Of a stretch of DNA of 64,000 nt, positions 18,930-55,789 are shown piece by piece. A model generated the notes under the pieces. The model was not told where the DNA came from. It was given only the letters and a program-made list of their open reading frames with translations, and ran no database searches. A program made the translations under genes and the position numbers. This stretch comes from Solilutibacter silvestris (GTDB lineage: Bacteria > Pseudomonadota > Gammaproteobacteria > Xanthomonadales > Xanthomonadaceae): the NCBI RefSeq assembly GCF_002895945.1, contig NZ_NPZB01000002.1:806001-870000 (forward strand), written 5' to 3'. Every line of letters begins with the position of its first letter. The first letter of the stretch is position 1.

Positions 18930-19266
18930 CGCGCCCGGCTTGGCACCAGCGCGCCGTACCTATGTGGCCGACAGGCGCTGCCGGGCGGGGAGCTTTTCAT
19001 CGTTTCGATGAAGCTATAACACGCGATGCAGTTGCTCTTGCGAGTCGCAACAACACGCGCGCGGCAAGTGGGTGCGCCAGTCCGATGCGCGGGCATACGA
19101 GGCATGGGTGAGGAAGCGCTGTTTACGCGGCATGCCGCGTGGCGATTCCGAACGCCCCGAGCGCTGCGAGGGGCCGGACCGCGCAGCGGCCGAGTCGAGC
19201 CTACATGGATGTATTCACGGCGTCCCGCGCATTGGAGCTGGTCACCCACGCCAGCCAGCGCGTGCG
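18930..19266 (+). repeat. Dispersed intergenic repeat, copy B (long form)
   Basis: This fills most of the 421-base gap between the convergent kinase and regulator genes. Its left part (CGCGCCCGGCTTGGCACC; GGCGCTGCCGGGCG at 18974; ACAACACGCGCGCGGC; GCATACGAGGCATGG) matches copy C. From 19102 it matches copy D through the 16-bp palindrome ACGCGGCATGCCGCGT (19125-19140) to the core GAGCCTACATGGATGTATTC. Its end (CCACGCCAGCCAGCGCGTGC) again matches C. Several short stems are visible. I see no gene in the gap. Confidence 0.88.
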
Positions 19267-19297
19267 ATGCTCTTGACACTCAGCCAACGTGTGTCAT

Positions 19298-19966
19298 TCA
19301 ACCCACCGGCATATGCCGACTGGGATCGCCCAGTTCCAGCTCACGCAACACCACGCCGGCCTGCGTGCGGTTGCGCACGCCGAGGCGCTCGAAGATCGCG
19401 GTGATGTGCGCCTTCACCGTGCGTTCCTGGATATCGAGGCGATCCGCGATCTGCTTGTTGAGCAATCCTTCGGCGACCAGTTGCAACACGCGGAACTGCT
19501 GCGGCGAGAGACTGGCGAGTCGGGTGGCGAGGGCGCGATCATCCGGCGACGATTGCGAGTGCTCGACGGAAGCGCGCAGGCTGGCCGGCAGCCAGCGCTC
19601 ACAGGCCAGCACGGCGCGGATCGCGGCATGCAGTTCATCGAGGCCGGATACTTTCGGCAGGAATCCGGCGGCGCCGTGGTCCAGCGCGCGGCGGATCACC
19701 CGCGGGTCGTCGTTGGCCGAGACCACGATCACTGCGACGTGCGGGTATTGTGCGCGGATCGCTGCCAGCCCGGTCAGGCCATGATTGCCCGGCATATGGA
19801 TGTCGAGCAGCACCAGGTCGATGTCGGAATGTGCATCGAGCGCGGCCAGCGCCGCATCCAGTGAATCGGCTTCGTGCATCCGCATGTCGTCCACGGCGTC
19901 GGCTGCGACCTGTTTCAAGGCCGCGCGAAACAGCGGGTGGTCGTCGGCGATCAGCACGGTGGGCAT
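19298..19966 (-). CDS. LuxR-type response regulator, CrbR/ErdR-like
   Basis: A 222-residue regulator: receiver domain (about 1-120) with Asp8-Asp9 and phospho-acceptor Asp55 (LVLLDIHMPG), conserved Ser and Lys (VVSAND, FLPKVS), then a LuxR-type helix-turn-helix (about 150-210; LSPQQFRVLQLVAEGLLNKQ, IQERTVKAHITAIF). ATG 19966 (MPTVLIADDHPLFR) is the usual start of this family; the frame extends seven codons further. It converges on the SSF hybrid kinase, its likely partner, and is divergent from the 3-hydroxybutyrate oligomer hydrolase across an 85-base gap carrying motif copy 2. It probably activates the hydrolase and the TonB receptor. Confidence 0.9.
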   Translation of the reverse strand: MPTVLIADDHPLFRAALKQVAADAVDDMRMHEADSLDAALAALDAHSDIDLVLLDIHMPGNHGLTGLAAIRAQYPHVAVIVVSANDDPRVIRRALDHGAAGFLPKVSGLDELHAAIRAVLACERWLPASLRASVEHSQSSPDDRALATRLASLSPQQFRVLQLVAEGLLNKQIADRLDIQERTVKAHITAIFERLGVRNRTQAGVVLRELELGDPSRHMPVG

Positions 19967-19999
19967 CGCGCCCAGCCTAGCAGTCACTGGCGATCGCTG

Positions 20000-20045
20000 C
20001 CTTGCACCAAAGTACGATGCGGGCCGGCGTGCGAAAAGCTATTGT
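20000..20045 (+). promoter_or_regulatory. Putative activator site and -10 of oligomer hydrolase (motif copy 2)
   Basis: CCTTG (20000-20004), CCAAA, GTACGATG (20012-20019), CGGG and CCGGCG (to 20029), then TATTGT at 20040-20045 as a -10 candidate. T of the -10 lies 28 bases after the G of GTACGATG, versus 29 in copy 1 at 13056. The site lies between the LuxR-type regulator and the hydrolase. Confidence 0.6.
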
Positions 20046-20051
20046 CACGAG

Positions 20052-21878
20052 ATGCGCCCGCTCATCCTCCTGCTTTCCGCCCTCGTGACCGCCGCTTCTG
20101 CCACTGCCGCCACGCGCCCGAGACACGCCATCAGCAAAAACACCATGGACACAACGCAGGTCAACATCACCGAGCATCGCAATGGCGACGACCTCCTCAC
20201 TGCAGGACTCGGGCTCGACGGTTTGCGGGCGATGACACCGCCGGCGTTCGCCGATGCCTTGCATCCCACCGCAGTCGAACGCCGTCGCCGCGCGATCTGG
20301 TCGAACTGGCGCGGCATCGCCGATCTCTCGCCGAATGGTGGCTATGGCAGCGTGTATGGCAGCACCGCCGACGTGCCCGGGCGCGAATTCACGACGCTGC
20401 TCACACTACCCGGCGCGCATGCGCCGCACCGCGTGGTGCTGCAATTGCCCGATGCCTTCGACACCCGCAAACGCTGCGTGGTGGTTTCGGTGGCGTCGGG
20501 TTCGCGTGGCGTCTATGGCGCGATGGCGGTGGGCGCGGCATGGGGCCTGCCGAAGGGTTGCGCCGTCGTCCACACCGACAAGGCCGCCGGCACCGATTAT
20601 TTCGATATCGACGCCAACGAAGGTGCGGACGCCGATGGTGCGCGCGTTCCCGCCGATGTCGCGATCGCCTTCAAGCCGCAACTCGCCGCAGGTGCCAGCG
20701 GTGTCGCCTTCAAGCACGCGCATTCCGGTGACAACCCGGAAGCCGATTGGGGGCGTCACGTCAAACAGGCGGCAGAATTCGCCCTGCGCATGCTCGATCA
20801 AACCTATCCCGCGCAGGCGCCGTTCACGCCACACAACACCAGGATCATCGCCACCGGCATTTCCAATGGCGGTGGTGCGGTGTTGCGTGCGGCGGAACTA
20901 GAAGGCGATTGGCTGGATGGCGTGGTTGCCGGCGAACCCAATATCCACGTCGAGGGCGGTCGCGCGTTGTATGACGTCGCCACCGAAGCGGCATTGCTGA
21001 TGCCCTGCGCCTTGCTTGACATGCCGGCGGAGTCGTTGCCGCAACCGCCGTTGCGTGCACAGGTGGAACCGTTGTGGACGCAACGTTGTGCCAGCTTGAA
21101 ATCGCTGGGAATGATCGAAGGCGAGACGGTTGCGCAGCAGGCGGCGTCCGCGCATGCGCAGTTGCGCGCGAAAGGTTGGAGTGATGGCGCATTGCATGGT
21201 GGCGCGGCATCGGTCGGATTCGACCTGTGGCGTGCGGTCGCGGTTGCATATGCCTCCGCCTATGGTCGTTATCGCGCCGGTGAACATCCCTGCGGATTCA
21301 ACTATTCGGCCATCGGCAGCGATCTCAAGCCGCGGCCGACCACGCCGGCCGAACGTGCAGGGTGGTGGAGCGATGGCAGCGGTATTCCGCCCGGCAACGC
21401 CATCGGCCTGATCGATCCGAAGATGGCCATGCCCGATCCGACGCTGGTCGGAGAACGTTGCCTGCGCGAGTTGTGGACCGGCACCGGCGCCGATGCACAG
21501 CGCGTGCGCAAGGGTGTGGCGGAAACGCAGGCAAAGACGCCGCGCAAGGGTTTCCCGATTCTCGTCATCCACGGCAGCGACGATGGCCTGGTGCCGCCGG
21601 CTTTCACCAGCGCGCCATGGGTCGCCGCCGCACGCGCCGCCGGGCGTCCGGTCGGGTACTGGACGGTCGCGCGCGCCGAACACTTCGATGCCTTCCTGGC
21701 ATTCCCGTCGTATGCGCAACGCTTCGTGCCATTGCTGCCATACATGTATGAGGGACTGGACCGCGTGTGGGCGCAGATCGAAGGACAGGCGAAGCTCGCC
21801 ACCGATGATCTCCACATCGATGCCAAACCGCGTGGCGATGCCGCATTGAGTCGCAGCGATCTCCGTCTGCCCGACTGA
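20052..21878 (+). CDS. D-(-)-3-hydroxybutyrate oligomer hydrolase
   Basis: A 608-residue exported hydrolase. After a signal peptide (LILLLSALVTAASATAA) come the family features: FTTLLTLPG, CVVVSVASGSRGVYGA, GCAVVHTDKAAGTDYFD and the nucleophile elbow ATGISNGGGAVLRAAE with Ser271; LVIHGSDDGLVPP and EHFDAF probably supply Asp and His. The family (PF10605) cleaves 3-hydroxybutyrate oligomers to monomers. Enzymes in other bacteria are near 690 residues, so this one is somewhat short. The product would be taken up by a permease such as the GntP protein at 11.6 kb. ATG 20052 was chosen because the longer frame runs back through the regulator gene. Confidence 0.88.
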   Translation: MRPLILLLSALVTAASATAATRPRHAISKNTMDTTQVNITEHRNGDDLLTAGLGLDGLRAMTPPAFADALHPTAVERRRRAIWSNWRGIADLSPNGGYGSVYGSTADVPGREFTTLLTLPGAHAPHRVVLQLPDAFDTRKRCVVVSVASGSRGVYGAMAVGAAWGLPKGCAVVHTDKAAGTDYFDIDANEGADADGARVPADVAIAFKPQLAAGASGVAFKHAHSGDNPEADWGRHVKQAAEFALRMLDQTYPAQAPFTPHNTRIIATGISNGGGAVLRAAELEGDWLDGVVAGEPNIHVEGGRALYDVATEAALLMPCALLDMPAESLPQPPLRAQVEPLWTQRCASLKSLGMIEGETVAQQAASAHAQLRAKGWSDGALHGGAASVGFDLWRAVAVAYASAYGRYRAGEHPCGFNYSAIGSDLKPRPTTPAERAGWWSDGSGIPPGNAIGLIDPKMAMPDPTLVGERCLRELWTGTGADAQRVRKGVAETQAKTPRKGFPILVIHGSDDGLVPPAFTSAPWVAAARAAGRPVGYWTVARAEHFDAFLAFPSYAQRFVPLLPYMYEGLDRVWAQIEGQAKLATDDLHIDAKPRGDAALSRSDLRLPD

Positions 21879-21915
21879 TTTGCGGTTTTCACCGGCGCTC
21901 TGGCAGTCTTGCGGG

Positions 21916-22551
21916 ATGAACACGCCCACACCCGACAAACCGCGTCATTTCTCCATGTTGCGCGAGTTCCGGCTCGCCGACTGGTTCACCTTGGGCAACG
22001 CCTTCTGCGGCACCGGCGCGATCTTCGCGGCGATGCGTTTCCTGCAGGATGACGTCAGTGGCGATCTGCTGGTCGGCATGGCGCTGATCCCGCTCGCTTT
22101 CATCTTCGACGCGCTGGACGGGCGCATCGCGCGTTGGCGCAAGGTCGCGTCCACCCTCGGACGCGAACTGGATTCGCTGGCCGATGTCATCTCGTTCGGC
22201 GTCGCCCCGGCGGCGCTGGCCTATGCCTGCGGCATGCAGGGCGGCTGGGACTGGATCGTGCTCAGCTACTTCGTCGGTTGCGGCGTCAGCCGCTTGGCGC
22301 GCTACAACGTCACCGCCGAACATTTGTCCGGCGCGGAAGGCAAGGTGAAGTATTTCGAAGGCACGCCGATCCCGACCAGCCTCGCATTGGTGGTCGTTCT
22401 CGCCATCGCCGCTTGGCAGGATCGCATCGGCAGCGATCTATGGGGCGGGGTGGTGATGCTCGGCCGCTGGCAGCTGCATCCACTGGTGCTGATGTTCGCG
22501 TTGTCGGGTTCGCTGATGATCAGCAAGACGCTGCGCATCCCCAAACCATGA
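21916..22551 (+). CDS. pssA: CDP-diacylglycerol--serine O-phosphatidyltransferase
   Basis: A 211-residue inner-membrane enzyme making phosphatidylserine, precursor of phosphatidylethanolamine. The CDP-alcohol phosphatidyltransferase motif D-x2-DG-x2-AR-x8-G-x3-D-x3-D is complete, starting at Asp65 (DALDGRIAR ... GRELDSLAD). Early residues (RLADWFTLGNAFCGTGAIF) match the PssA branch with about six helices. It starts 37 bases after the oligomer hydrolase stop. Its presence between the hydrolase and phaE is probably incidental housekeeping. Confidence 0.92.
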   Translation: MNTPTPDKPRHFSMLREFRLADWFTLGNAFCGTGAIFAAMRFLQDDVSGDLLVGMALIPLAFIFDALDGRIARWRKVASTLGRELDSLADVISFGVAPAALAYACGMQGGWDWIVLSYFVGCGVSRLARYNVTAEHLSGAEGKVKYFEGTPIPTSLALVVVLAIAAWQDRIGSDLWGGVVMLGRWQLHPLVLMFALSGSLMISKTLRIPKP

Positions 22552-22625
22552 CGGGCGTGCAGCGGCGCCATGGACGACGCATGCGTGCGTGCTAGCATCG
22601 ATCCAACCCGATTCGGAGAGCACGC

Positions 22626-23810
22626 ATGAACTCGCCATGGCCCGCGGATTTCGAGCAACTTTCGCGTCAATACTGGACGGCCTGGAACGAGATGATGCGC
22701 AACGGCCGCATCGCCGGATCGCCGAGCGCGATGCCGGGAATGCAGGGAATGCCCGGGTTCGGTTTGCCGGGTGCAATGCCGAACTTTGGCGCGACGCCGG
22801 GTTTCGGCGCGATCCCCGGAATGGGCGGCATGCCTGGAATGGGCGGCATGCCTGGAATGGGTGCGATGCCCGGTATGGGTGGCATGCCGAACATGGGCGG
22901 AATGATGGGCGGTGCGCCTGCCGGCTGGCGCGAGGCGATGGCGTTCTGGAACAACGCGGCGATGGGCATTCCCGACAGCGGCGTGCGCAACGTCGCCGAT
23001 CGCATGAACGCGCAGGCCAGCGTGTGGTGGGGCGAGATGCAGAAGCTCGCTGCGCAATTCTCCGCGGGGAATGCCGGTGCCGCGGAGATCGCCGCGCAAT
23101 GGCGACAGGCGATGGATGGGCAGGGCAACCAAGCCGTGCTCGACATGTTCAAGGGCTTGCAGGGTGCGGATTCGCATAGCCTGGAAGCGTGGTACGACGC
23201 CGCGCGTCCGTGGATCGAATCGTGGCGCAGGGAAACGCAGAGCATGCTCGGCATGCCGACGTTCGGTTTGGCGCGCGAGCACCAGGAACGCATGCAGGCG
23301 TTGATGCAATCGCAGATGGAGTACCAGGATCGCCTGTCGGCTTACAACGCGTTGCTGCTCAAGGCCAGCCAGGATGCGACCTCGGTCTTCGAAACACTGC
23401 TGGCGAAACACGAGGAACCGGGCAAGCAGTTGACCAGCGCGCGCGCATTGTTCGACCTGTGGATCGATGCCGCCGAACAGGCGTACGCGAAGATTGCCTT
23501 GTCGCCGGAGTTCCGCACCACCTATGGCGACATGGTCAATGCGCAAATGCGCTTGCGCCAGCAGGTCCAGCGCGAGATCGAACAACTTTGCGGCGTGTTC
23601 GGCATGCCGACGCGCACCGAAATCGATGCGGCGCACCGCAAGATCGCCGAACTGGAACGGATGCTGCGGCGCCAGGCGGCAGGAACGAAACCGGCCAGCG
23701 AAGCGCCAGCCGCACGCAAGCCGGCACGCAAATCGCCGGCATCCACCAAGGCGCGTGCGCCATCGCCAACCAGCAAGACGACTGCAAGCAAACGCCCACG
23801 GAGCCGCTGA
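22626..23810 (+). CDS. phaE: Class III polyhydroxyalkanoate synthase subunit PhaE
   Basis: A 394-residue partner subunit of PhaC, needed for polymerisation of 3-hydroxyacyl-CoA at the granule surface. Supporting features are the position two bases before phaC, the N-terminal WPADFEQLSRQYWTAWNEMM and the C-terminal PhaE region (ARALFDLWIDAAEQAYAKI; FRTTYGDMVNAQMRLRQQVQ). Two odd parts are present. Residues about 35-98 are a Met-Pro-Gly repeat stretch of MPGMGG type. The last 50 residues are Lys/Ala/Pro/Ser-rich, like a histone H1 tail or phasin PhaF tail, and may bind DNA. A TAGCAT -10-like element lies about 35 bases upstream. Confidence 0.9.
   Translation: MNSPWPADFEQLSRQYWTAWNEMMRNGRIAGSPSAMPGMQGMPGFGLPGAMPNFGATPGFGAIPGMGGMPGMGGMPGMGAMPGMGGMPNMGGMMGGAPAGWREAMAFWNNAAMGIPDSGVRNVADRMNAQASVWWGEMQKLAAQFSAGNAGAAEIAAQWRQAMDGQGNQAVLDMFKGLQGADSHSLEAWYDAARPWIESWRRETQSMLGMPTFGLAREHQERMQALMQSQMEYQDRLSAYNALLLKASQDATSVFETLLAKHEEPGKQLTSARALFDLWIDAAEQAYAKIALSPEFRTTYGDMVNAQMRLRQQVQREIEQLCGVFGMPTRTEIDAAHRKIAELERMLRRQAAGTKPASEAPAARKPARKSPASTKARAPSPTSKTTASKRPRSR
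22728..22918 (+). repeat. Coding tandem repeat (Met-Pro-Gly-Met-Gly-Gly units) in phaE
   Basis: Degenerate 18-base units such as GGAATGGGCGGCATGCCT are tandemly repeated; two adjacent copies near 22819-22857 are identical or nearly so. They encode PGMGGM units. Recent unit duplication is likely, and length may vary between strains. Confidence 0.85.
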
Positions 23811-23811
23811 C

Positions 23812-24903
23812 ATGGCCGCAGCAGACGCGAAGAAAACCAGCCCGCTCAACATCACCCCGGAAGCGTTGGCGGAAGAAGCGATTGGCATGCAGTCCAAGCT
23901 GGGCGCAGGCTTGGAAACATTGCGCGAGGTCGGCGATTATGGCTACGGCACCACCGAACGCGAGGAAGTGTGGCGCGACGGCAAGACCGTGCTGTATCGC
24001 TTCCGTCCCAAGAAACAGGCGCTGGCACGTACGCCGATCCTGGTCTGCTACGCGCTGGTGAATCGCCCGTACATGATCGACCTGCAGGACGATCGCTCTC
24101 TGGTGAAGGGACTGCTGGAGCGTGGGCAGGATGTCTACGTCATCGATTGGGGTTACACCGATCGTTCCGACTGCTTCCTGACGCTGGAGGACTACATCGA
24201 GCGCTTCCTCGGTGGCGCGGTCGATTTCCTCCGCGACAGGCACGGCGTGCATGGCGTCAACCTGCTCGGCGTCTGCCAGGGCGGGGCGTTTTCGCTGTGC
24301 TATGCGTCGCTGCATCCGGAGAAGGTCCGCAACCTGATCACGATGGTGACGCCGGTCGACTTCCAGACCGCGGACAACATGCTGTCGAACTGGACGCAGG
24401 GCCTCGACGTCGACCTCTTCATCGACACGCTCGGCAATGTCCCCGCCGACCTGATGAATTATTCCTACCTGATGCTGAAACCGTTCCGGCTCAACATGCA
24501 GAAATACGTCGGGCTGGTCGACATCCTCGACAACAAGAAGGCGCTCGAGGATTTCCTGCGCATGGAAAAGTGGATCTTCGATTCGCCGGACCAGGCGGGC
24601 GAAGCGTTCCGCCAGTTCATCAAGCAGTTCTACCAGGGCAACGGTTTCGTCAATGGCGGCATCACCATCGGCGAACGCGAAGTCGACCTCGGCTTCATCG
24701 ACATGCCGGTGCTGAATATCTACGCCGAGCAGGATCACCTGGTGCCGCCGGACGCCTCGAAGGCGTTGAAAGGATTGATCGGCAGCGAGGATTACACCGA
24801 GCTCAGTTTCCGCGGCGGCCACATTGGCATCTATGTATCGAGTCGCGCGCAACACGAGGTTCCGGAAACGATCCATACGTGGTTGGTGCGGCGTTCCCGT
24901 TGA
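23812..24903 (+). CDS. phaC: Class III poly(3-hydroxyalkanoate) synthase subunit PhaC
   Basis: A 363-residue catalytic subunit; class III enzymes are about 355 residues. The lipase-like box GVCQGG holds the nucleophile Cys155, with Asp308 (YAEQDHLVPP) and His337 (GGHIGIY). These are offset by exactly six from the Allochromatium vinosum triad Cys149-Asp302-His331. It polymerises (R)-3-hydroxybutyryl-CoA with PhaE. The start at 23812 lies just after the phaE stop, so the two are co-translated. With the oligomer hydrolase nearby, the region covers both synthesis and degradation of polyhydroxybutyrate. Confidence 0.95.
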   Translation: MAAADAKKTSPLNITPEALAEEAIGMQSKLGAGLETLREVGDYGYGTTEREEVWRDGKTVLYRFRPKKQALARTPILVCYALVNRPYMIDLQDDRSLVKGLLERGQDVYVIDWGYTDRSDCFLTLEDYIERFLGGAVDFLRDRHGVHGVNLLGVCQGGAFSLCYASLHPEKVRNLITMVTPVDFQTADNMLSNWTQGLDVDLFIDTLGNVPADLMNYSYLMLKPFRLNMQKYVGLVDILDNKKALEDFLRMEKWIFDSPDQAGEAFRQFIKQFYQGNGFVNGGITIGEREVDLGFIDMPVLNIYAEQDHLVPPDASKALKGLIGSEDYTELSFRGGHIGIYVSSRAQHEVPETIHTWLVRRSR

Positions 24904-24916
24904 CCCATCGCATTCG

Positions 24917-25360
24917 ATGCGGATGAACAACCTGCCGCATCGCTTGTTGCAACTGCTCGGCATGGCGTGGACCTTGCCGAACAGCCTGCTCGGCGTATTG
25001 CTGGGACTGGTGGCGATGCCGTTCGGCGCGAGGCCGCGTTGGCGTGGCGGGGATCTCGCGCTGGTGTTCCAGCATTGGCCGTGGGGGCCGGGCGGGGCGA
25101 TCACCTTCGGCAATGTCATCCTCCATACCGGGGACACGCTCGACTGTCCCTGCATCACCTATGCGCAACGTGCGGGATTGGCGCAGACGCCGATGATCGT
25201 GCTTGGCGATCACGAACGCGCGCATGTCTATCAATACATGGTGCTGGGCGTGCTGTTCCTGCCGCTGTATCTGCTATGTGGCGGTGTCAGTCACCGCAAT
25301 CGTTTCGAACAGGCAGCGGATCGCTACGCGATGACCGGCCGCGGCTGGTGGCCGTTTTAG
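24917..25360 (+). CDS. Small membrane protein with HExxH motif, function unknown
   Basis: A 147-residue protein (145 if ATG 24923 is used) starting 14 bases after phaC. It has a hydrophobic N-terminal segment (LPNSLLGVLLGLVAMP), a middle soluble part and a second hydrophobic segment (MVLGVLFLPLYLLCGG). Between them is GDHERAHVYQ, an HExxH zinc-protease motif (His99, Glu100, His103), and after the second segment comes NRFEQAADRYA, resembling the third-ligand helix ExxxD of M48-like proteases (Glu131, Asp135). This suggests a minimal zincin-like fold, but activity is not shown. The end overlaps the converging epimerase gene by four bases. Confidence 0.7.
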   Translation: MRMNNLPHRLLQLLGMAWTLPNSLLGVLLGLVAMPFGARPRWRGGDLALVFQHWPWGPGGAITFGNVILHTGDTLDCPCITYAQRAGLAQTPMIVLGDHERAHVYQYMVLGVLFLPLYLLCGGVSHRNRFEQAADRYAMTGRGWWPF

Positions 25361-26454
25361 CTGTTCAACCACTCGATTCCGTCAATCTTCGCGATTCCCA
25401 GCCCCGGCGCATCGCCCAGCATGATGTTCGCTTCATCGAACACCGTCGTTCCGTGCACCGGATTGAACGTGCACAGCGATGGGCCATCGAGATCGATTCT
25501 GGTGATCGTCGCCGAACGCGCCACTGCGACGTGTGCCGCTGCGGTGACGCCGATCGGGCCTTCCAGCATGCAGCCCATCATGCAGTCGACGCCGTGGATC
25601 GCGGCGACGTCGGCCATCTTCAGCGCGTTGGAAATGCCGCCGGCCTTCATTAGCTTGATGTTGATGATGTCGGCGGCGCGCGTGCGGATCAGCTCGATCG
25701 CCTCGCGTGGACCGAAGGCACTTTCGTCCGCCATCACCGGCGTGCGCACGTTCGCCGAGACTTCGCGCAGGCCATCGATGTCGTGGGCCTTCACCGGCTG
25801 TTCCACCAACTCCATCGCGACACCGGCATCTTCCAGCGTGCGGATCGCGTGGATCGCCTCGCGTGCGTTCCAGCCCTGGTTGGCATCGAGCCGCAGCGAA
25901 GCGCGTCCGGCCACCGCGGCATGCACCGCGCGCATGCGTTCGATATCGGTCGCCATGTCCTTGCCGACCTTGATCTTGAGCGAGGTGAAACCGCGTGCCA
26001 GTGCATCCAGGCTGTCGGCCACCATCTTGTCGATGCCGTCGACGCTGATGGTGATATCGGTGGAGAGTCTCGGTTCGCCGCCGCCAAGCAACTGGTACAA
26101 CGGCGCACCATGCAACTGGCCCCAGAGATCGTACAGCGCGATTTCGGCCGCGGCCTTGGCGCTGGTATTGCGTTGCAGCGCACCCTGGGTGCGCGCGACC
26201 AACGCATTGAGATCGGTGATGTCGCCATCGATCAGCTGCGGAGCGATGTAGCGGCGGATCGCCTCGATGATCGATCCGTGGGTGTCGCCGGTGATCGCGG
26301 CGGTGGCCGCTGCACTGCCGTGGCCGACGTGGCCATCGTCGGTTTCGATCGCGACGACCACGTCCTCGACCTGTTCCACCGTGCGCAACGCGGTCTTGAA
26401 CGGCGTTTTCAGCGGGATGCGCAACATGCCGAGGCGGATCGTGCGGATCTTCAT
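25357..26454 (-). CDS. Dipeptide epimerase of the enolase superfamily (L-Ala-D/L-Glu epimerase-like)
   Basis: A 365-residue enzyme of the muconate-lactonising subgroup. Catalytic features: SLKIKVGK with Lys160 and Lys162, metal ligands Asp190 (RLDANQGW), Glu218 (LVEQP) and Asp243 (MADES), and Lys267 (INIKLMKAGG). The C-terminal loop has GCMLEGPIGVTAAAH, as in dipeptide epimerases that help recycle murein peptides. The start at 26454 (MKIRTIRLGMLRIPLK) is the standard N-terminus; an upstream in-frame ATG gives a non-conserved extension. Substrate specificity within the group cannot be set from sequence alone. Confidence 0.87.
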   Translation of the reverse strand: MKIRTIRLGMLRIPLKTPFKTALRTVEQVEDVVVAIETDDGHVGHGSAAATAAITGDTHGSIIEAIRRYIAPQLIDGDITDLNALVARTQGALQRNTSAKAAAEIALYDLWGQLHGAPLYQLLGGGEPRLSTDITISVDGIDKMVADSLDALARGFTSLKIKVGKDMATDIERMRAVHAAVAGRASLRLDANQGWNAREAIHAIRTLEDAGVAMELVEQPVKAHDIDGLREVSANVRTPVMADESAFGPREAIELIRTRAADIINIKLMKAGGISNALKMADVAAIHGVDCMMGCMLEGPIGVTAAAHVAVARSATITRIDLDGPSLCTFNPVHGTTVFDEANIMLGDAPGLGIAKIDGIEWLNS

Positions 26455-26513
26455 GGCGTCGATTCGGATGCGATGCGGCAAGCATAGAGGATCATCCATG
26501 CGCGCAGCGATCG

Positions 26514-26550
26514 CCAAAAGAAAGCCCCGGCACCTTGCGGGTCCGGGGCG
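26514..26550 (-). terminator. Terminator of tmRNA
   Basis: On the minus strand CGCCCCGGACC and GTGCCGGGGC pair across a short loop and are followed by TTTCTTTT, starting eight bases after the tmRNA 3' end. Confidence 0.85.
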
Positions 26551-26557
26551 ATCAGTT

Positions 26558-26911
26558 TGGTGGAGATGGCGGGAATCGAACCCGCGTCCGAAGGCACTCC
26601 ATGCCCGGCACTACATGCTTAGCCCGGTGTTTGATCTCGAATGAAGGCAACACACCGTGCGAGGCACACCTTCATCCACACCCGCTTTGTTTTAGGAGCC
26701 GGTTGACGGGTCGCCGCCGGCCACGATCCTGTGATGATGACCCTACATCCACGAGCACAGGCACAAGTGGGTTCGGGGCTAGGCCTTAAGCGGCCAGAGC
26801 GTAGACGTCGTCGTTGGCGTCTGAGTTTTTGCAGCTGGATTAACGAGGAAAGCTACCCCCTCGGCATGCGCCAAGCGATTTCGCAACCCCCGTCGAATCC
26901 AGTGCATCCCC
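26558..26911 (-). ncRNA. ssrA: tmRNA (transfer-messenger RNA)
   Basis: The 3' end on the minus strand is tRNA-like: GGTTCGATTCCCGCC arm, then ATCTCCACCA with encoded CCA at 26560-26558. The 5' end begins GGGGATG and continues with CTGGATTCGACGGGGGTTG, as in other tmRNAs, giving about 354 nt. The tag reading frame lies at 26818-26786: resume codon GCC, then AAC GAC GAC GTC TAC GCT CTG GCC GCT TAA, encoding ANDDVYALAA. The preceding GCAAAAACTCAGAC resembles the segment before the E. coli resume codon. It rescues stalled ribosomes with SmpB, whose gene is about 2.2 kb away. Confidence 0.97.
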
Positions 26912-26938
26912 GGGAACTTTGTCTCGCTAGACCAAACC

Positions 26939-26944
26939 AGTATA
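26939..26944 (-). promoter_or_regulatory. -10 element of tmRNA promoter
   Basis: TATACT on the minus strand, 28 bases before the mature 5' end, allowing a short leader for RNase P to remove. The -35 region is weak by eye. The element lies just before the sensor-kinase start on the other strand. Confidence 0.55.
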
Positions 26945-26959
26945 GGGCAGAATCCCTGA

Positions 26960-29116: not shown

Positions 29117-29123
29117 GGAAGGT

Positions 29124-29642: not shown

Positions 29643-29680
29643 GCGCCTATTGTCGCATTTGCAGCCGCGCCGCAGCCGAC

Positions 29681-31342: not shown

Positions 31343-31375
31343 GCGGAACTCCTCGCGCCCGGCGTGCGCCCGCTT

Positions 31376-31463
31376 GGGTGCCCCTATGACCGACACGCCG
31401 TGAATACATCCATGTAGGCTCAGCCGCCGCATCCATGCGGCGGAATGGTCGGCCATAGGGACC
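31376..31463 (-). repeat. Dispersed intergenic repeat, copy C1 (short form, inverted)
   Basis: On the minus strand the core reads GAGCCTACATGGATGTATTC then ACGGCGTGTCGG (about 31388-31452). Outer arms GGGTGCCCCTATGACCGAC and GGTCGGCCATAGGGACCC are inverted repeats, pairing with each other although their sequence differs from the arms of copy A. A perfect inner hairpin CCGCCGCAT-CC-ATGCGGCGG lies at about 31423-31442. It follows the fur stop. Confidence 0.85.
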
Positions 31464-31472
31464 CACCGCGCA

Positions 31473-31687
31473 GGCGCTGCCGGGCGTTGGAGCGTTTCTT
31501 CGCTGCGATGAAGTCACAACACGCTCGTGCTGTCGCTCTTTGGCGAGCCGCCACAACACGCGCGCGGCCAGTGGGCGGTCTGCCTGATGCGCGGGCATAC
31601 GAGGCATGGATGCCGAGTCGAGCCTCCATGGACGGATTCACGGCGTCCCGCGCATTGGGTCTGCCGCCCACGCCAGCCAGCGCGTGC
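31473..31687 (+). repeat. Dispersed intergenic repeat, copy C2 (forward)
   Basis: From GGCGCTGCCGGGCG to CCACGCCAGCCAGCGCGTGC it follows copy B closely, with ACAACACGCGCGCGGC, GATGCGCGGGCATACGAGG and GAGCCTCCATGGACGGATTC. It lacks the insert with the 16-bp palindrome seen in B and D, having GGATGCCGAGTC there instead. With C1 it fills the 348-base gap between the convergent fur and recN genes. No gene is seen in the gap. Confidence 0.85.
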
Positions 31688-31690
31688 CAA

Positions 31691-42054: not shown

Positions 42055-45297
<3,243 letters not shown>

Positions 45298-45304
45298 GAA
45301 AACG

Positions 45305-45781: not shown

Positions 45782-45784
45782 TGC

Positions 45785-48447: not shown

Positions 48448-49597
48448 GTCCGAACAACGGGCGCAGCCAGCCGATGCGACGGATCAGGCATTCATGCAGC
48501 AACAGGCACCCTGCGATCGTTCCTGCAACCACCAGCAGTGGTTCCACCACCGGCCCGAGATGCTTCGGGATCAGCATAAAGGCGATGGCGATGATCAAGG
48601 TCTGGTGCAGCACGTACCAGGGAAAGATCGCTTCCGTGCAATAGGGCAGCCAGTGAAACGGCTTGTCCAGCAATACCCGCCCCCAACCGAAGATCGCCAA
48701 CAGCGCCAACCATGTGTAGCTGGCGCGACCGATACGCTCGACTGCACCCCAGGAGACATGCATCGTCCATTCCGGCAACGGGTCTGCCGGCGGATGGCCA
48801 CCCAGCCAGCGCAGCCCCAATTCGAGCGAGATCGCCAGTACCGCCGCCACGAGTGTCTTCCAGCGCCGGCGTTCGACCCAAGTCCAAAACCACTGGCTGG
48901 CCGCCAGCAGGTAGCCGAGCAGGAACAGCGGCAGCGATTCGGCGTGCACCGTCCAGTCGCCGAGCAGCGCGTGGCTCTCTGGATAGCGCGGCATCAGCCA
49001 CAACTGCACGAAGATCATCCACGCGGCGGGAGCGACAACCAGCAGCCATCCGGCAATGGCGGAGCGCGCCCGAGGTTCCATCCACGCCCGCATGCGCCTG
49101 AGCGCTGGCATCAGCACCAACAGCAACATCGTATACGGCCACAAATAGGCCAGGTACCAGAGATGGTTCCAGGTCGGAGTGGTCAGGCACTGGCCGTCGC
49201 GGCAGAGCCCGGCGGTCACGTAGAGCTTGTAGAAGTGCGAAAAGCCCCCGGCGTAGCCGAACTGCGTAATGATCTGGATCCAGGTTTGCGGCGGAACCAC
49301 GACAAACATGCCGAAGATCAGCGGCAGCAGCAGGCGCCAGCTGCGCGTGGCTGCGAAGCGCAGCCGATGGTCTCCTGCTCTGGTGAGGCCGATGGCGATT
49401 CCGGAAATCATGAACAGCAGCGGCATTCGCCAGCGGTTGAGCGCGATCATCGGCCACTGCAGCCATTCGGCCGTGTAGTCGCTCTTGATGTGGAAGCCCC
49501 AGTCGGCGACGTAGACCATGGCCGAGTGGTAGAGGATCAGCAAGGCGAAGGCGAGAATCCGCAAGGCATCGATATCGTGTCGGCGACGGTTGTCCAT
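48308..49597 (-). CDS. Acyltransferase-3 family membrane protein (OpgC-like)
   Basis: A 429-residue inner-membrane protein with about ten helices. It starts RRRHDIDALRILAFALLILYH, the arginine- and histidine-bearing first helix of acyltransferase-3 proteins that O-acylate cell-surface sugars or glucans; RMPLLFMISGIAIGL and YPFHQT-like WYVLHQTLIIAIAF also fit. The target is unknown. The last 46 codons run antisense into the end of recJ (140-base overlap) and encode a Pro/Ser/Arg-rich tail without family features, as if the original stop was lost. It interrupts the recJ-rpfD order known from Xanthomonas and may be an insertion. Confidence 0.82.
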   Translation of the reverse strand: MDNRRRHDIDALRILAFALLILYHSAMVYVADWGFHIKSDYTAEWLQWPMIALNRWRMPLLFMISGIAIGLTRAGDHRLRFAATRSWRLLLPLIFGMFVVVPPQTWIQIITQFGYAGGFSHFYKLYVTAGLCRDGQCLTTPTWNHLWYLAYLWPYTMLLLVLMPALRRMRAWMEPRARSAIAGWLLVVAPAAWMIFVQLWLMPRYPESHALLGDWTVHAESLPLFLLGYLLAASQWFWTWVERRRWKTLVAAVLAISLELGLRWLGGHPPADPLPEWTMHVSWGAVERIGRASYTWLALLAIFGWGRVLLDKPFHWLPYCTEAIFPWYVLHQTLIIAIAFMLIPKHLGPVVEPLLVVAGTIAGCLLLHECLIRRIGWLRPLFGLKRRSDLRQARDATPSIALPRHPSSHRAPGDTALAPVLESDPPSSH

Positions 49598-49752
49598 CGA
49601 TGGGCATCCACAAAGAAGATGGCGCCAGCTTTCGACCTGCCGGCAGCGATCTCCAGCGCCAGATGACCAGATGCGAGGTCCCTGTGACGAATTGCAGGCC
49701 AACAGGGACGAGTCGTGGGGGCCGATGTCGCGCCCACCCATACAATGCGTGG

Positions 49753-50631
49753 ATGGAATCCGGCCCGACGACGTTTTACCAACGCTACCTGCCGTGGCGA
49801 CGCAGTTTCGAAACCGGCTTCTGGATCATCCAGTTCCTGGTCAGTGCGATCGCGAACAGCATTACGGTTGGAGTGGATGCGCAGCGCCTCCAGCTCGCGC
49901 TCGCGCCGTGGCAGGCGGCGACCCTGGAGACCAGCAGCGCCCTCGCATCGTTGCTGCTGGTGCCGGCCGTAGTCTGGATGGTGCGTCGCTGGCCGATCCA
50001 CCTCGACAACTTGCGACGCACGCTGCCGATCCATGTGCTCGCCAGCGTCGGCTGGTCGATGCTGCATGTCGTGGGCATGGTCGCCATCCGCAAGATCGTC
50101 TACGCCAGCCAAGGCACCCATTACGACTTCGATCCATGGTGGTCCGGATTCGGTTACGAATACCTGAAGGATGTCCGCAGCTACGCCAGCATGGTGGTGG
50201 CGATCGAAGGCTATCGGTTCGTCATGCTGCGCCTGCAGGGCGAAGCCAGCCTGCTCGACAGGCCGGATGAAGGGCCGCCGGTCGAATCGATCGAACGTCC
50301 CGAACGTTTCCTGATCCGCAAGCTCAATCGCGAGTTCCTGGTCGCCGCCAACGACATCGAATGGCTGCAGGCGTCCGGCAATTACGTCAACCTGCGCGTC
50401 CGCGGCCACGATTACCCGTTGCGCAGCACCATTGCGGGCATCGAGGCCAAGCTCGACCCGGAACGCTTCCTGCGCATCCAGCGCAGCTACATGGTCAATC
50501 TCGACCAGGTGGTGTCGATCGAGCCGCTGGACACCGGCGACGCCCGCGTCCACATGCGCGATGGCGCACGACTGCCATGCAGCCGCACCTACCGCAACGG
50601 GCTGCGGCAGCGCTTTGGGCAAGACGGGTGA
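49753..50631 (+). CDS. rpfD: LytTR-domain membrane regulator RpfD
   Basis: A 292-residue protein: about four hydrophobic segments in the first 170 residues (FWIIQFLVSAIANSIT; SSALASLLLVPAVVWMV; VLASVGWSMLHVVGMVAI), then a LytTR DNA-binding domain (about 190-285) with RFLIRKLNREFLVAANDIEW, LRSTIAGIEAKL, FLRIQRSYMVNLDQVVSIEP and LPCSRTYRNGL. Position next to recJ and prfB matches rpfD of Xanthomonas. The genes it controls are not known. ATG 49753 begins MESGPTTFYQRYLPWR. The 155 bases upstream separate it from the divergent acyltransferase. Confidence 0.87.
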   Translation: MESGPTTFYQRYLPWRRSFETGFWIIQFLVSAIANSITVGVDAQRLQLALAPWQAATLETSSALASLLLVPAVVWMVRRWPIHLDNLRRTLPIHVLASVGWSMLHVVGMVAIRKIVYASQGTHYDFDPWWSGFGYEYLKDVRSYASMVVAIEGYRFVMLRLQGEASLLDRPDEGPPVESIERPERFLIRKLNREFLVAANDIEWLQASGNYVNLRVRGHDYPLRSTIAGIEAKLDPERFLRIQRSYMVNLDQVVSIEPLDTGDARVHMRDGARLPCSRTYRNGLRQRFGQDG

Positions 50632-50687
50632 GGGTAGGAGCCCCGGCTGCTATCATGCTCGGCTGTTTCCGTAGTCAGTTTCCGCAC

Positions 50688-51813
50688 ATGATCGAGCTCA
50701 ATCCAATCCGAGCCCGCATCGCCGACCTCAGCGGTCGGCTCGATGCGCTCCGGGGGTATCTTTGACTACGACGCCAAACGCGAGCGTCTTGAAGAAGTCG
50801 AGCGTGAGCTCGAAAACCCCGACATCTGGAACGATTCCGAACGCGCGCAGGCGCTCGGTCGCGAGCGTTCGCTGCTCGACAAGACCGTCAATGGCATCCG
50901 CGACCTGAAGGACGGCCTCGGCGGTGCGGGCGAATTGCTCGATCTCGCCGAAATGGAAGACGACGAAGACACCGCGCTGGCCGTGGTCACCGACGTCGAT
51001 CGCTTCGAAAAGGGCGTCGAGCAGCTGGAATTCCAGCGCATGTTCTCCGGCAAGATGGATTCGCATTCGGCCTTCGTCGATATCCAGGCCGGCGCCGGCG
51101 GCACCGAAGCGCAGGACTGGGCGGAAATGCTGTTGCGCATGTATCTGCGCTGGGCGGAATCGCGCGGCTGGAAGACCGAGTTGATGGAAGTCAGCGGCGG
51201 CGATGTCGCCGGCATCAAGTCGGCGACCTTCCGCGTCGAAGGCGAATACGCTTACGGCTGGCTCAAGACCGAGATCGGCGTGCATCGACTGGTGCGCAAG
51301 TCGCCGTTCGATTCCGACAATCGCCGCCACACCAGTTTCACCAGCGTCTTCGTGTCGCCGGAAGTGGACGACGACATCGACATCGACATCAATCCCGCCG
51401 ATCTGCGCACCGACGTGTACCGTTCCTCGGGCGCGGGTGGCCAGCACGTCAACAAGACCGAATCCGCGGTGCGCATCACCCACATCCCGACCAATACCGT
51501 GGTCGCCTGCCAGACCGGCCGCAGCCAGCACCAGAACCGCGATACCGCGATGAAGATGCTGGCGGCGAAGCTGTACGAGCTTGAGGTCCAGAAGCGCAAC
51601 GCCGAGAAGGACGCGCTGGAAGCGACCAAGGCCGACATCGGCTGGGGCAGCCAGATCCGCAATTACGTGCTCGACCAGAGCCGGATCAAGGATCTGCGCA
51701 CCGGCATCGAACGCAGCGATACCCAGAAGGTGCTCGATGGCGATCTCGACGAATTCGTCGAAGCCAGCCTGAAGTCGGGACTGGAAGCGGGTGCCAAACG
51801 CATCGATTTATAA
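50688..51813 (+). CDS. prfB: Peptide chain release factor 2, made by programmed +1 frameshift
   Basis: RF2 terminates translation at UGA and UAA. The first 25 codons run from ATG 50688 to the in-frame TGA at 50763-50765; translation continues in the +1 frame from 50764, giving 375 residues (join 50688-50762 and 50764-51813). In the joined protein the stop-recognition motif SPF is at 205-207 and the catalytic GGQ ([15 protein letters not shown]) at 250-252, the same numbers as in E. coli. Low RF2 lets the ribosome stall at TGA and shift, giving autoregulation. A TATCAT -10-like element lies near 50651. It is the usual neighbour of lysS. Confidence 0.97.
50752..50766 (+). other. prfB programmed +1 frameshift site
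   Basis: GGGGGT (50752-50757) acts as an internal Shine-Dalgarno, followed by TAT CTT TGA C. The slip is on CTT at 50760-50762, one T is skipped, and GAC is read next. It matches the classical site. Confidence 0.97.
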
Positions 51814-51853
51814 GTCTGTTGTTTGTGTTCCGATCACTGACGAGGAGACTGGT

Positions 51854-52138
51854 ATGAACCGCAAGAAGATCTGCTTCATTCTGTTTGTTTCTGTTGCACT
51901 GGCAGCATTCGGTGCAGCCGCGCAACCACGGCAAGACGGTGGCATCAAGCACGATACCAAGGCCGTTGGCCATGACATCGCCAATGGCGCTCGCAAAGTC
52001 GGGCATGGAACAAAACACGCCGCCAAGACAGTTGGTCACGGTGCAAGGAAGGCCGGGACCGCTGTCGGCCATGGTGCGCGCCAAGGCTGGCACGCGACCA
52101 AACACGCAGTGAAGCATGTGTTCCACAAGGGTGATTGA
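51854..52138 (+). CDS. Small exported His/Lys-rich repeat protein, function unknown
   Basis: A 94-residue protein. ATG 51854 follows a strong GAGGAGA ribosome site. Residues 1-23 are a signal peptide (ICFILFVSVALAAFGAAAQ). The rest is a basic stretch of about 65 residues made of degenerate units of about 10-11 residues: TKAVGHDIANG, ARKVGHGTKH, AAKTVGHGARK, AGTAVGHGARQ, then GWHATKHAVKHVFHKG. The period suggests an amphipathic helix with regularly spaced His and Lys/Arg, possibly binding metal, nucleic acid or membrane; none is shown. It lies alone between prfB and lysS, where Xanthomonas has no conserved gene that I recall. Confidence 0.8.
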   Translation: MNRKKICFILFVSVALAAFGAAAQPRQDGGIKHDTKAVGHDIANGARKVGHGTKHAAKTVGHGARKAGTAVGHGARQGWHATKHAVKHVFHKGD

Positions 52139-52219
52139 GCGCCAGCGGATACGCTTTCTCCATATTCCACAAGTGAGACATCAACTGCCGGTACAGACGC
52201 CGGCAGTCACGGAAACCCC

Positions 52220-53737
<1,518 letters not shown>

Positions 53738-55429
53738 TTACGCCTTCGGTGCCGCATCCCGCAATTCGCGCCGCAAAATCTTGCCGACGTTCGTCTTCGG
53801 CAGTTCCGTACGGAATTCGACGACGTGCGGGCGCTTGTAGCCGGTGAGGTTTTCCTTCGCGTAGGCGATCACCTGTTCGGCCGTGAGCGATGGATCCTTC
53901 TTCACGATCACCACCTTCACCGCTTCGCCGGAATGTTCGTCCGGCACGCCGACGGCGGCCACTTCGGCGATGCCCGGCATCGACGCGAGTACGTCTTCGA
54001 TTTCATTCGGATAGACGTTGAAGCCGGACACCAGGATCATGTCCTTCTTGCGATCGACGATGAAGACAAAACCGGTTGACTCGATCCGCGCCATGTCGCC
54101 GGTATGCAGCCAGCTGTCGCCATCGATCTGCTGCGCCGTTTCCGCCGGGCGCTGCCAGTAACCGGCCATGACTTGCGGGCCCTTGATGCACAGTTCGCCG
54201 ACTGCGGCACCGTCCATCGCCAGGGTTTTGCCGTCGTCGTCCTTGATGCAGACATCGGTGGACGGAATCGGCAGGCCGATCGAACCGTTGTAGGCGGGCA
54301 GGTCGAGTGGATTGATGCAGGCGGCGGGAGAGGTTTCCGTCAAGCCATAGGCTTCGGAAAGCGTGCAGCCGGTGACGGCCTTCCAGCGCTCGGCGACGCT
54401 GCGTTGCACCGCCATGCCGCCGCCCAATGACAGGTGCAGGTGCGAGAAATCGACCTCATCGAAACCGGGCGTGTTGAGCAGGCCGTTGAACAGCGTGTTG
54501 ACGCCGGTGAAGGAGGTGAACTTGTGCTTCTTCAATTCCTTGACGAAGCCGGGCATGTCGCGCGGATTGGTGATGAGGATATTGCGCGCGCCCAGTTCCA
54601 TGAACACCAGGCCGTTCGCTGTCAACGCGAAGATGTGATACAGCGGCAGCGCGGTGATGATGGTTTCCTGGCGGTCCTCGCTCACGCACGGCGAGATCCA
54701 CGCGCCGGCCTGCAGCATGTTCGAGACCAGGTTGCGATGGGTCAGCATCGCGCCCTTGGCGACGCCGGTGGTGCCGCCGGTGTATTGCAGGAAGGCGATG
54801 TCGCTGTTCTTGACTTCCACTTTCGGCATCGGCGCGTTTGCGCCTGCAGCCAGTGCATCGCGATAGCGGATGGCACCGGGAATCGAATACGCCGGCACCA
54901 TCTTCTTGACGTGCTTGACCACGAAGTTGACCAGCGCGCCCTTCAATCCACCGAGCAGGTCGCCGAGGCCGGTGGTGACCACGTGCTTGACGGCGGTGTC
55001 GGGCAGTGCATCCGCAAGCGTCTTGCCGAAGTTGTCGACGACGACGATCGCGACCGCGCCGGAATCCTTGAGCTGGTGCTCGAGTTCGCGCGCGGTGTAG
55101 AGCGGATTGACGTTCACCACGGTCAAGCCGGCGCGCAGGATGCCGAAGGTGGCGATCGGCTGCTGCAGGCAGTTGGGCATCATCACCGCGACGCGGTCGC
55201 CCTTCGACAGTTTCAGGGTGTTGAGCAGGAACGAGGCGAACTGCGCGCTGAGGGTGTCGAATTCGCCATAGGTGAGCGACTTGCCCATGCAATAGAACGA
55301 GTCGCGGTCGCGATGCTTGCTGATCGCGCGTTCCAGTACCGCGTTGATCGACGTGTAGGAATCGGGATCGATGGTGGCGGCAACGCCCTTCGGGTAGTTC
55401 GCGAGCCAGGGGCGTTCGAGTTCACTCAT
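53738..55429 (-). CDS. rpfB: Long-chain acyl-CoA ligase RpfB/FadD
   Basis: A 563-residue AMP-forming ligase that activates fatty acids with CoA. P-loop-like motif YTGGTTGVAKGAML, adenylate motif AYGLTETSPAACINPL, WLHTGDMARI and the C-terminal hinge IVDRKKDMILVSGFNVYPNE are complete; the catalytic lysine stands in LPKTNVGKILRREL. In Xanthomonas RpfB turns over fatty acids and DSF signals and is adjacent to rpfF; here rpfF is not present and lysS follows directly. Start 55429 (MSELERPWLANYP) is the usual one; a longer frame runs upstream without conservation. Confidence 0.93.
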   Translation of the reverse strand: MSELERPWLANYPKGVAATIDPDSYTSINAVLERAISKHRDRDSFYCMGKSLTYGEFDTLSAQFASFLLNTLKLSKGDRVAVMMPNCLQQPIATFGILRAGLTVVNVNPLYTARELEHQLKDSGAVAIVVVDNFGKTLADALPDTAVKHVVTTGLGDLLGGLKGALVNFVVKHVKKMVPAYSIPGAIRYRDALAAGANAPMPKVEVKNSDIAFLQYTGGTTGVAKGAMLTHRNLVSNMLQAGAWISPCVSEDRQETIITALPLYHIFALTANGLVFMELGARNILITNPRDMPGFVKELKKHKFTSFTGVNTLFNGLLNTPGFDEVDFSHLHLSLGGGMAVQRSVAERWKAVTGCTLSEAYGLTETSPAACINPLDLPAYNGSIGLPIPSTDVCIKDDDGKTLAMDGAAVGELCIKGPQVMAGYWQRPAETAQQIDGDSWLHTGDMARIESTGFVFIVDRKKDMILVSGFNVYPNEIEDVLASMPGIAEVAAVGVPDEHSGEAVKVVIVKKDPSLTAEQVIAYAKENLTGYKRPHVVEFRTELPKTNVGKILRRELRDAAPKA

Positions 55430-55620
55430 TCCGGTTGTTCCTTGCACGCTGCGGTGGAGTATGGATCGTCGGTCGATTGGAGCATGCGCATGCTGCATGC
55501 GGCAAGCATCGGTGTTGGTGCGATGCAGCAGTCGCGACATGCAGTGCAATTCGAGCGGGAAGTGCGGACGCTTCGGAACGAGCGGCGAGATGGCGGATTC
55601 CCTGAAGCGACCGTGCCGCC

Positions 55621-55750
55621 GCATGGGTGAGGAAGCGCCGCTGACGCGGCATGCCGCGTGGCGATTCCGAACGTCACGAGCGCAAGCGAGTGGCCGGTCC
55701 CGCGCAGCGGGCGGCGGACGAGCCTACATGGATGTATTCACGGCGTGTCG
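55621..55750 (+). repeat. Dispersed intergenic repeat, copy D (long form)
   Basis: GCATGGGTGAGGAAGCGC, the palindrome ACGCGGCATGCCGCGT (55644-55659), GGCGATTCCGAACG and the core GAGCCTACATGGATGTATTC with ACGGCGTGTC match copy B in order. Between them GTCAC-GAGCGCAAGCGA-GTGGC stands where B has GCCCC-GAGCGCTGCGA-GGGGC, so pairing is kept. It lies downstream of the acnA stop, in the 379-base acnA-rpfB gap. The remaining part of the gap (55430-55620) is the rpfB upstream region with no gene. Confidence 0.87.
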
Positions 55751-55754
55751 CGGA

Positions 55755-55789
55755 AGGGAACCGACGCCTCGCGGCTAACCCGGTTCCCT
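55755..55789. other. Perfect 9-bp stem-loop after acnA
   Basis: AGGGAACCG (55755-55763) and CGGTTCCCT (55781-55789) are exact inverted repeats with a 17-base loop, 20 bases beyond the acnA stop. There is no T-run on the acnA strand, so it may protect the mRNA 3' end rather than terminate alone. Confidence 0.55.

What the first reader, a model, noticed from the sequence alone, without database searches (positions are those of the whole stretch)
18930..55789. Dispersed structured repeat at gene 3' ends, with stems that covary between copies
Copies at 11.46-11.57, 18.93-19.27, 31.38-31.69 (two, inverted to each other) and 55.62-55.75 kb share the core GAGCCTACATGGATGTATTC + ACGGCGT and the phrase CATACGAGGCATGG. 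All lie just downstream of a gene: after gntP and acnA, and in the convergent gaps hk/rr and fur/recN. Long copies (B, D) carry a 16-bp perfect palindrome. Next to it GCCCC/GGGGC in B is GTCAC/GTGGC in D around the same loop. Outer arms in copy A (CTGCAG type) and C1 (CCCTATG type) differ completely but each pairs with itself. Changing sequence with kept pairing suggests selection on structure: an mRNA 3' stabiliser or terminator, a structured RNA, or a mobilised REP/MITE-like unit.
Basis: seen in the sequence. Interest (0 to 1): 0.78.

Follow-up and report, generated by a model that had tools for sequence, protein, structure and literature searches.

The report
Dispersed repeat with twin CsrA-type hairpins
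A small mobile DNA repeat, previously known as a Yersinia element, turns out to be scattered in many Gammaproteobacteria, and its RNA keeps one elaborate fold that shows two loops matching the binding site of the regulator CsrA, so it may act as a dispersed decoy or anchor for that regulator.

Summary
The repeat is real: 5 copies in the window, 55 in the genome (<=3 mismatches; reversed-pattern control 0), and the core in 38 of 369 sampled gammaproteobacterial genomes, up to 550 copies in one; 0 of 261 sampled genomes of other classes. It is a distant relative of the Yersinia mobile element YPAL/RU-2 (Rfam Ysr224): printed RU-2 contains the core, but window copies score far below Rfam's cut-off. 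The fold is a three-way junction: variable outer stem, variable inner hairpin, conserved bulged hairpin; covariation 0.686 against 0.179 shuffled, 0/500. Two new points: wobble pairs lie on one strand (G.U 201, A.C 41), so the strand reading GAGCC...GGA is selected to fold; and both loops on it read C-ANGGAN-G, the CsrA/RsmA motif. A RAYT is not associated; gene 3' ends are not a general site. Best reading: a YPAL-type non-autonomous mobile element whose RNA presents twin CsrA sites. Fold and relation are shown; CsrA binding is inferred. Against it: no orientation bias to upstream genes, csrA undetected in 3 of 38 carriers, GGA lost in some Yersinia copies.

The parts
11462..11600 (-). Copy A (short unit; folding, GGA strand is -). 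Core 11501-11527
   Evidence: fold of the - strand -77.1 kcal/mol
18930..18990 (.). Probable decayed partner of copy B: outer arms without the core
   Evidence: sequence compared by eye with copies
19045..19275 (+). Copy B (long unit). Core 19197-19223; about 85-bp palindromic insert inside the inner hairpin
31352..31490 (-). Copy C1 (first unit of an inverted dimer; GGA strand is -). Core 31395-31421
   Evidence: the three-way junction with open GGA loops is the minimum-energy fold, -86.3 kcal/mol
31540..31690 (+). Copy C2 (second unit of the dimer; GGA strand is +). Core 31620-31646
   Evidence: its minimum-energy fold keeps the outer stem but not both hairpins
31343..31690 (.). Whole dimer, between the convergent stop codons of fur (31342) and recN (31691)
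   Evidence: empty or differently filled orthologous gaps in congeners; gene names
55597..55760 (+). Copy D (long unit). Core 55720-55746; palindromic insert inside the inner hairpin

Best explanation
The repeats are copies of a non-autonomous mobile element related to the Yersinia element YPAL/RU-2/Ysr224. Its RNA, read on the strand GAGCCTACATGGATGTATTCACGGCGT, folds into a three-way junction: a long outer stem of free sequence, an inner hairpin of free sequence, and a conserved hairpin with a 3-bp base and a 5-nt bulge. Both hairpins end in a C-ANGGAN-G loop, so one element offers two CsrA/RsmA sites 23 nt apart, enough for one CsrA dimer to clamp. Shown: copy number, fold, covariation, strand, loop motif, a dimer between convergent stop codons that abut in relatives. 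Inferred: that CsrA binds, and that transcripts through the elements therefore recruit or titrate CsrA.
For: Covariation score 0.686 against 0.179 shuffled (0/500) and <=0.184 for slid partners, 68 copies. Inner hairpin: 100 distinct hexaloops read A(95) N G(92) G(91) A(94) N with closing C-G in 96; 7 of the rest have the GG on the opposite strand; 46 different 5-nt stems among the 214 hairpins found. Mismatches in outer arms on the GGA strand: G.U 201 against A.C 41, one copy per arm cluster, 112 of 126 clusters scored; by copy 75 against 12, 25 ties, p=2.7e-12. The GGA strand is the more stable fold in 60 of 83, less in 20. CsrA SELEX consensus RUACARGGAUGU and ANGGAN recognition (passages); the core reads CUACAUGGAUGUA, and UACAGGGAUGU in a common variant. 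CsrA bridges two sites 10-63 nt apart, best >18 nt (passage). Relation to YPAL/Ysr224. Empty sites.
Against: No binding or expression data. GGA strand not preferentially co-oriented with the upstream gene: tandem gaps same 7+11+26, antisense 11+12+45; G249 sample 26 against 36. csrA not found in 3 of 38 carriers (G008, G196, G343); with the own CsrA as query only hits of E 0.29 and 0.40. csrA rate among non-carriers 278 of 331, so no clear link. 4 of 16 Yersinia copies lost GGA in the core loop. Long copies B and D have the inner loop interrupted. Rfam models Ysr224 on the opposite strand. On alignment A1 the wobble bias is weaker, 79 against 40. In predicted folds both GGA triplets are fully open in 47 of 83 only. 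Strand-specific folding of single-stranded DNA would give the same wobble bias.
Confidence: 0.5

Rival explanations
1. The fold serves mobility, not regulation: a YPAL-type MITE whose one strand folds, as single-stranded DNA or as an RNA intermediate, and whose loops are read by an unknown transposition machinery. The likeness to CsrA sites is then a coincidence.
For: Copies behave as mobile: patchy in congeners (9 of 17), filled and empty sites, exact flanking repeats of 17-21 nt that contain a hairpin in 5 of 15 Yersinia copies. The wobble bias fits single-stranded DNA as well. Carriers without detected csrA exist.
Against: In M. buryatense the core sits inside at least four element families with unrelated ends, so the ends rather than the core look like the transposition sites. 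The loop motif stays constant across the class while stems change. No clear replichore bias of strands: 67 against 52 by GC skew (my tally). A 54-nt composite query found nothing in plasmids or phages.
Confidence: 0.33
2. A passive 3' stem that stabilises mRNA or ends transcription, selected only for stability.
For: Very stable folds (-77 to -122 kcal/mol for single units); convergent gaps favoured in the own genome (11 against 3 divergent); published suggestion for YPAL (PMC2229807, section 11 read).
Against: Does not explain the fixed loops nor the near-invariant bulge and junction; in G249 divergent gaps are used as much as convergent; no T-run seen at the end of the unit by eye.
Confidence: 0.12
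3. REP-like repeat moved by a RAYT (Y1) transposase.
For: High copy number, mostly extragenic, GTAG inside some cores.
Against: Y1_Tnp found in 4 of 17 congeners: near-full domains only in G371 and G375 (0 copies) and G384 (1 copy), a partial match in the own genome, none in G377 and G378 with 63 copies each; GTAG is not kept (GGAG and GGGG variants).
Confidence: 0.03
4. Ordinary palindromic repeats without structural selection.
For: Copies within a genome share arms by descent.
Against: (0/500 shuffles); outer-arm pairing score median 17 against 7 for arms swapped between copies.
Confidence: 0.01

Closest known systems
YPAL / RU-2 (Yersinia palindromic sequence), Rfam RF02770 Ysr224
   Same: Shares the core and a GGA inner hairpin: the printed RU-2 contains gcgccaaggatggcgcggctcgagcctacatggatgtatttacggcgtc (PMC2759123 Table 1b, passage). 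Three Yersinia pekkanenii copies score 106.8-112 bits. Intergenic, mobile, near dyad symmetry (PMC2229807, section 11).
   Different: Window copies score 19.9 bits or less against a cut-off of 70 (copy C only); arms are unrelated; in the own genus units often form inverted dimers. PMC2229807 lists YPAL for Yersinia and Erwinia carotovora (table passage). No text that I saw links it to CsrA, but no paper search joined the two names.
CsrB / RsmY / RsmZ decoy RNAs
   Same: Several ANGGA hairpin loops on one RNA.
   Different: Not a single sRNA gene but up to hundreds of dispersed copies; two loops per unit on a three-way junction; no match to these families in the window nor at copy C.
REP / BIME / REPIN with RAYT
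   Same: Extragenic palindromes, inverted pairs.
   Different: No associated RAYT, no constant GTAG, larger unit with a conserved junction.
ERIC
   Same: Enterobacterial palindromic MITE of similar size (papers, passages).
   Different: Sequences were not compared here.

Membership tests
YPAL / Ysr224 (RF02770) | Score at or above Rfam gathering cut-off (70 bits) | tested here: not met
   Copy C 19.9 and 13.9 bits; own genome best 27 bits among 150 of 776 candidates scored; of 10 genomes only the Yersinia one exceeds the cut-off
YPAL / Ysr224 (RF02770) | Shared core and adjacent GGA hairpin | tested here: met
   Printed RU-2 sequence against window copies
YPAL / Ysr224 (RF02770) | About 167-bp unit with internal inverted repeats | tested here: inconclusive
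   Window units A, C1 and C2 are about 139-151 bp, B and D longer; ends were set by eye, not by duplications
YPAL / Ysr224 (RF02770) | Target-site duplication of 3-26 bp | tested here: inconclusive
   Clear in some Yersinia copies, not recognised in own-genome copies
YPAL / Ysr224 (RF02770) | Filled and empty sites in relatives | tested here: met
   fur-recN gap
CsrA/RsmA-binding RNA | ANGGA in a hairpin loop, two sites 10-63 nt apart | tested here: met
   23 nt between the two GGA in A1
CsrA/RsmA-binding RNA | Measured binding to CsrA | not testable with these tools
   No experiment
CsrA/RsmA-binding RNA | csrA present in every carrier | tested here: not met
   35 of 38 carriers have a csrA hit; the three others are multi-contig assemblies of 75, 98 and 85% completeness
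REP with RAYT | Cognate Y1 transposase in carrier genomes | tested here: not met
   (own genus only)
Intrinsic terminator | GC stem followed by T-run | tested here: inconclusive
   No T-run at the unit's end by eye; in Yersinia the T-run belongs to the repeated host hairpin. No terminator scan was run

The most novel reading that the evidence does not exclude
A class-wide family of mobile elements carries an optimal twin CsrA site as its payload. Hundreds of copies in one genome would form a distributed CsrA sponge, or place CsrA on hundreds of transcripts, either as a host-used network or as a selfish device by which the element couples itself to, or disarms, a global regulator.
Probability: 0.35. 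Interest if true: 0.88.

Novelty: new variant of a known kind. Interest (0 to 1): 0.66.

Why it matters
Ysr224 is listed among the 20 sRNAs with most annotated instances (PMC9029176, passages), but its role is open and, in the papers seen here, it is tied to Yersinia and Erwinia. Here it becomes one branch of a class-wide family with a strongly covarying fold and a candidate protein partner, so its function becomes testable by one gel shift. If CsrA binds, a carrier such as G249 (550 copies) holds up to about a thousand extra sites, which would change how CsrA regulons are read in those bacteria.

Tried and rejected
RAYT link: rejected. Strict csrA dependence: not supported. cis 3'UTR orientation: not supported (ORFs were called by my own scripts, those crudely). 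Plasmid, phage and E. coli mobility: a 54-nt composite query found nothing at E<=1. Paper search by core letters found nothing relevant, although RU-2 is in print with a T where I asked for C, so that search was too narrow. CsrA with REP, MITE or sponge wording: no listed title or abstract start makes such a link (of 58 papers I saw 15). My last paper search was poorly chosen: 'ypal' matched 'schizotypal'. M. buryatense ends were paired to look for a longer autonomous element; spans without the core were listed but not examined for genes.

Selections that shape the counts: copies were found with patterns that contain TCC, so conservation of the core loop is partly by construction; the inner loop is not. 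For alignment A1 copies were kept only if 5 of 7 inner-stem pairs were Watson-Crick, which favours helix 2 but not helix 1 (304 copies, 168 of standard spacing, 83 nonredundant). I passed 68 of the 83, leaving out 15 by eye as near-duplicates or register-shifted rows. In one search the swapped-arm control reaches 17 at its 99th percentile, because some swapped arms are related; 72 of 126 cluster representatives exceed that.
Full report
Five core copies lie at the stated places (none expected), and the own genome (2.85 Mb) holds 55 with up to 3 mismatches against 0 for the reversed pattern. No Rfam family reaches its cut-off at the repeats; the only hit in the window is tmRNA.

Spread. With a degenerate 26-mer and one mismatch, 38 of 369 genomes of the class carry it, one (G249) with 550 copies; the control pattern gives 0. 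In a phylum sample 18 of 398 genomes carry it; by my count of the rows 18 of 137 Gammaproteobacteria and 0 of 261 others. Within the own genus 9 of 17 genomes carry 1 to 63 copies; in the genus of G249 6 of 6 carry 85 to 550. A 54-nt query found nothing in plasmids, E. coli genomes or phages.

Fold. Copies were cut out and compared. Sequence upstream of the core pairs with sequence downstream: median local score 17 for 276 copies against 7 when arms are swapped between copies; the swapped control reaches 17 at its 99th percentile, and 72 of 126 arm-cluster representatives exceed it. A gapless alignment of 68 nonredundant copies supports four helices: outer 15 bp (79.4% of cells paired), inner 7 bp (94.5%), a GCC/GGC base (98%) and the core mini-hairpin (100%). 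Covariation score 0.686 against 0.179 +- 0.010 shuffled, 0 of 500; slid partners reach 0.184 at most. RNAalifold finds most of the outer stem, the inner hairpin and the core mini-hairpin unaided, without the GCC/GGC base, and extends the inner helix by two pairs. The sample for helix 2 was chosen partly by its pairing; helix 1 was not.

Strand. In the outer arms, one copy per arm cluster (112 of 126 scored), mismatched pairs on the GGA strand are G.U 201 times and A.C 41 times; in the inner stems of 112 distinct hairpins, 27 against 12 by summing the rows. By copy the outer count is 75 against 12 with 25 ties, p = 2.7e-12; on A1 it is weaker, 79 against 40 cells, 31 against 10 copies. Without strand-specific selection the two should be equal, because a change seen as G.U on one strand is A.C on the other. 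The GGA strand is the more stable fold in 60 of 83 copies and the less stable in 20. So the selected molecule is that strand, as RNA or as single-stranded DNA.

Loops. Among 276 copies, 214 had an inner hairpin of 5 bp or more; 100 distinct ones have hexaloops. On the GGA strand these read A 95, N, G 92, G 91, A 94, N, with C-G closing in 96, while the next stem pairs take all four types; 7 of the rest have GG on the opposite strand. The core hairpin reads UACAUGGAUGUA with variants UACAGGGAUGUA, CCCAUGGAUGGG and UCCAUGGAUGGA, pairs changing together. The CsrA SELEX consensus is RUACARGGAUGU, mostly in hexaloops (PMC7652899, passages), and RsmA-type proteins recognise ANGGAN (PMC3791407, passages). 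A CsrA dimer bridges sites 10-63 nt apart, best above 18 (PMC7652899, passage); here the two GGA are 23 nt apart in A1. The match is my inference; none of the listings shows it, and no search joined YPAL or Ysr224 with CsrA.

Relation to known elements. With a permissive Rfam search copy C hits RF02770 Ysr224 at 19.9 and 13.9 bits, while three Yersinia pekkanenii copies reach 106.8 to 112 bits, and that genome has 26 hits, 15 above cut-off; of the nine other carriers tested, eight have only weak hits and one none. The RU-2/YPAL sequence printed in PMC2759123 contains the core and a GGA hairpin (passage). YPAL is about 168 bp, mobile, with target duplications of 3-26 bp near dyad symmetry (PMC2229807, section 11). 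In Yersinia, 5 of 15 copies are flanked by exact repeats of 17-21 nt that contain a hairpin, at least three of them followed by a T-run. Over all loci, flanking repeats of 16 nt or more occur in 28 of 417 copies against 2 of 414 swapped pairs, but part of these are tandem copies. Ysr224 copies are expressed differently in Y. ruckeri biofilm (PMC12112432, passage). So YPAL is the Yersinia branch of a much wider family; the window elements fail Rfam's threshold and are called relatives, not members. Ysr224 is modelled on the opposite strand, which stands against a simple reading of the strand result.

Mobility. At the fur-recN gap (names) three relatives (G381, G369, G384) have closely abutting gene ends and no element, G380 has about 90 bp of other DNA, the own genome has a dimer of about 348 bp, and G378 and G379 have a dimer in the inverted order; G377 has one core-bearing unit in that order and what looks like a decayed second unit (partly by eye). 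M. buryatense carries the core inside at least four families with unrelated ends. A Y1 transposase is absent from the richest congeners.

Context. Own genome: of 45 copies, 13 fell inside called ORFs, some probably spurious; of the other 32, 11 lie in convergent, 18 in tandem, 3 in divergent gaps. In 40 regions of 20 kb of G249, 116 copies with usable context: 19 convergent, 62 tandem, 28 divergent, 7 inside called ORFs; strand against GC skew 67 to 52 of 119 copies, my tally. The GGA strand is not preferentially the mRNA strand in tandem gaps: 44 same against 68 antisense, 26 against 36. This weakens a cis 3'UTR role and leaves a trans decoy, antisense transcripts, or a role in mobility.

csrA. 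35 of 38 carriers have a PF02599 hit, 278 of 331 non-carriers. The three without one give nothing better than E 0.29 with the own CsrA as query; their assemblies are 75, 98 and 85% complete. Four of 16 Yersinia copies have lost GGA in the core loop. These are the main results against a strict CsrA dependence.

Verdict. The element and its fold are firmly shown; relation to YPAL is firm by shared core; the CsrA partner is the best available explanation for fixed ANGGAN loops on free stems, at about even odds, and is easy to test.

Noticed in passing
19106-19190 and 55625-55705: Long copies B and D look like short units with an 80-90 bp GC-rich palindromic module inserted in the inner hairpin loop; a like module is seen in other own-genome copies (L013, L014, L025).
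   Followed up: partly
L249-L288 (G249, element family f2): Spans between the element ends form a ladder near 131, 180 and 228 bp, as if a 48-49 bp module is added once or twice; some long copies carry GGA loops on the opposite strand.
   Followed up: no
L049:3751-3874 and L136:261-380: Sub-threshold Rfam hits to V_AS5 (Vibrio RNA AS5), 38.9 and 43.4 bits, near Yersinia copies; may be another dispersed repeat.
   Followed up: no
26558-26911, strand -: tmRNA gene, 193.5 bits (RF00023).
   Followed up: no
own genus, pairs about 180-300 bp apart: Paired copies in the listings mostly show one mutual orientation (ACGCC strand + then -), as a composite dimer; one pair in the own genome (C1:1585898 and 1586095) is direct.
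   Followed up: partly
L242:1500-2410: Five tandem copies about 227 bp apart in G565, with a shared spacer that holds TTTTGTAGGAGCGGCTTCAGCCGCG, which resembles a Pseudomonas REP (recalled).
   Followed up: no
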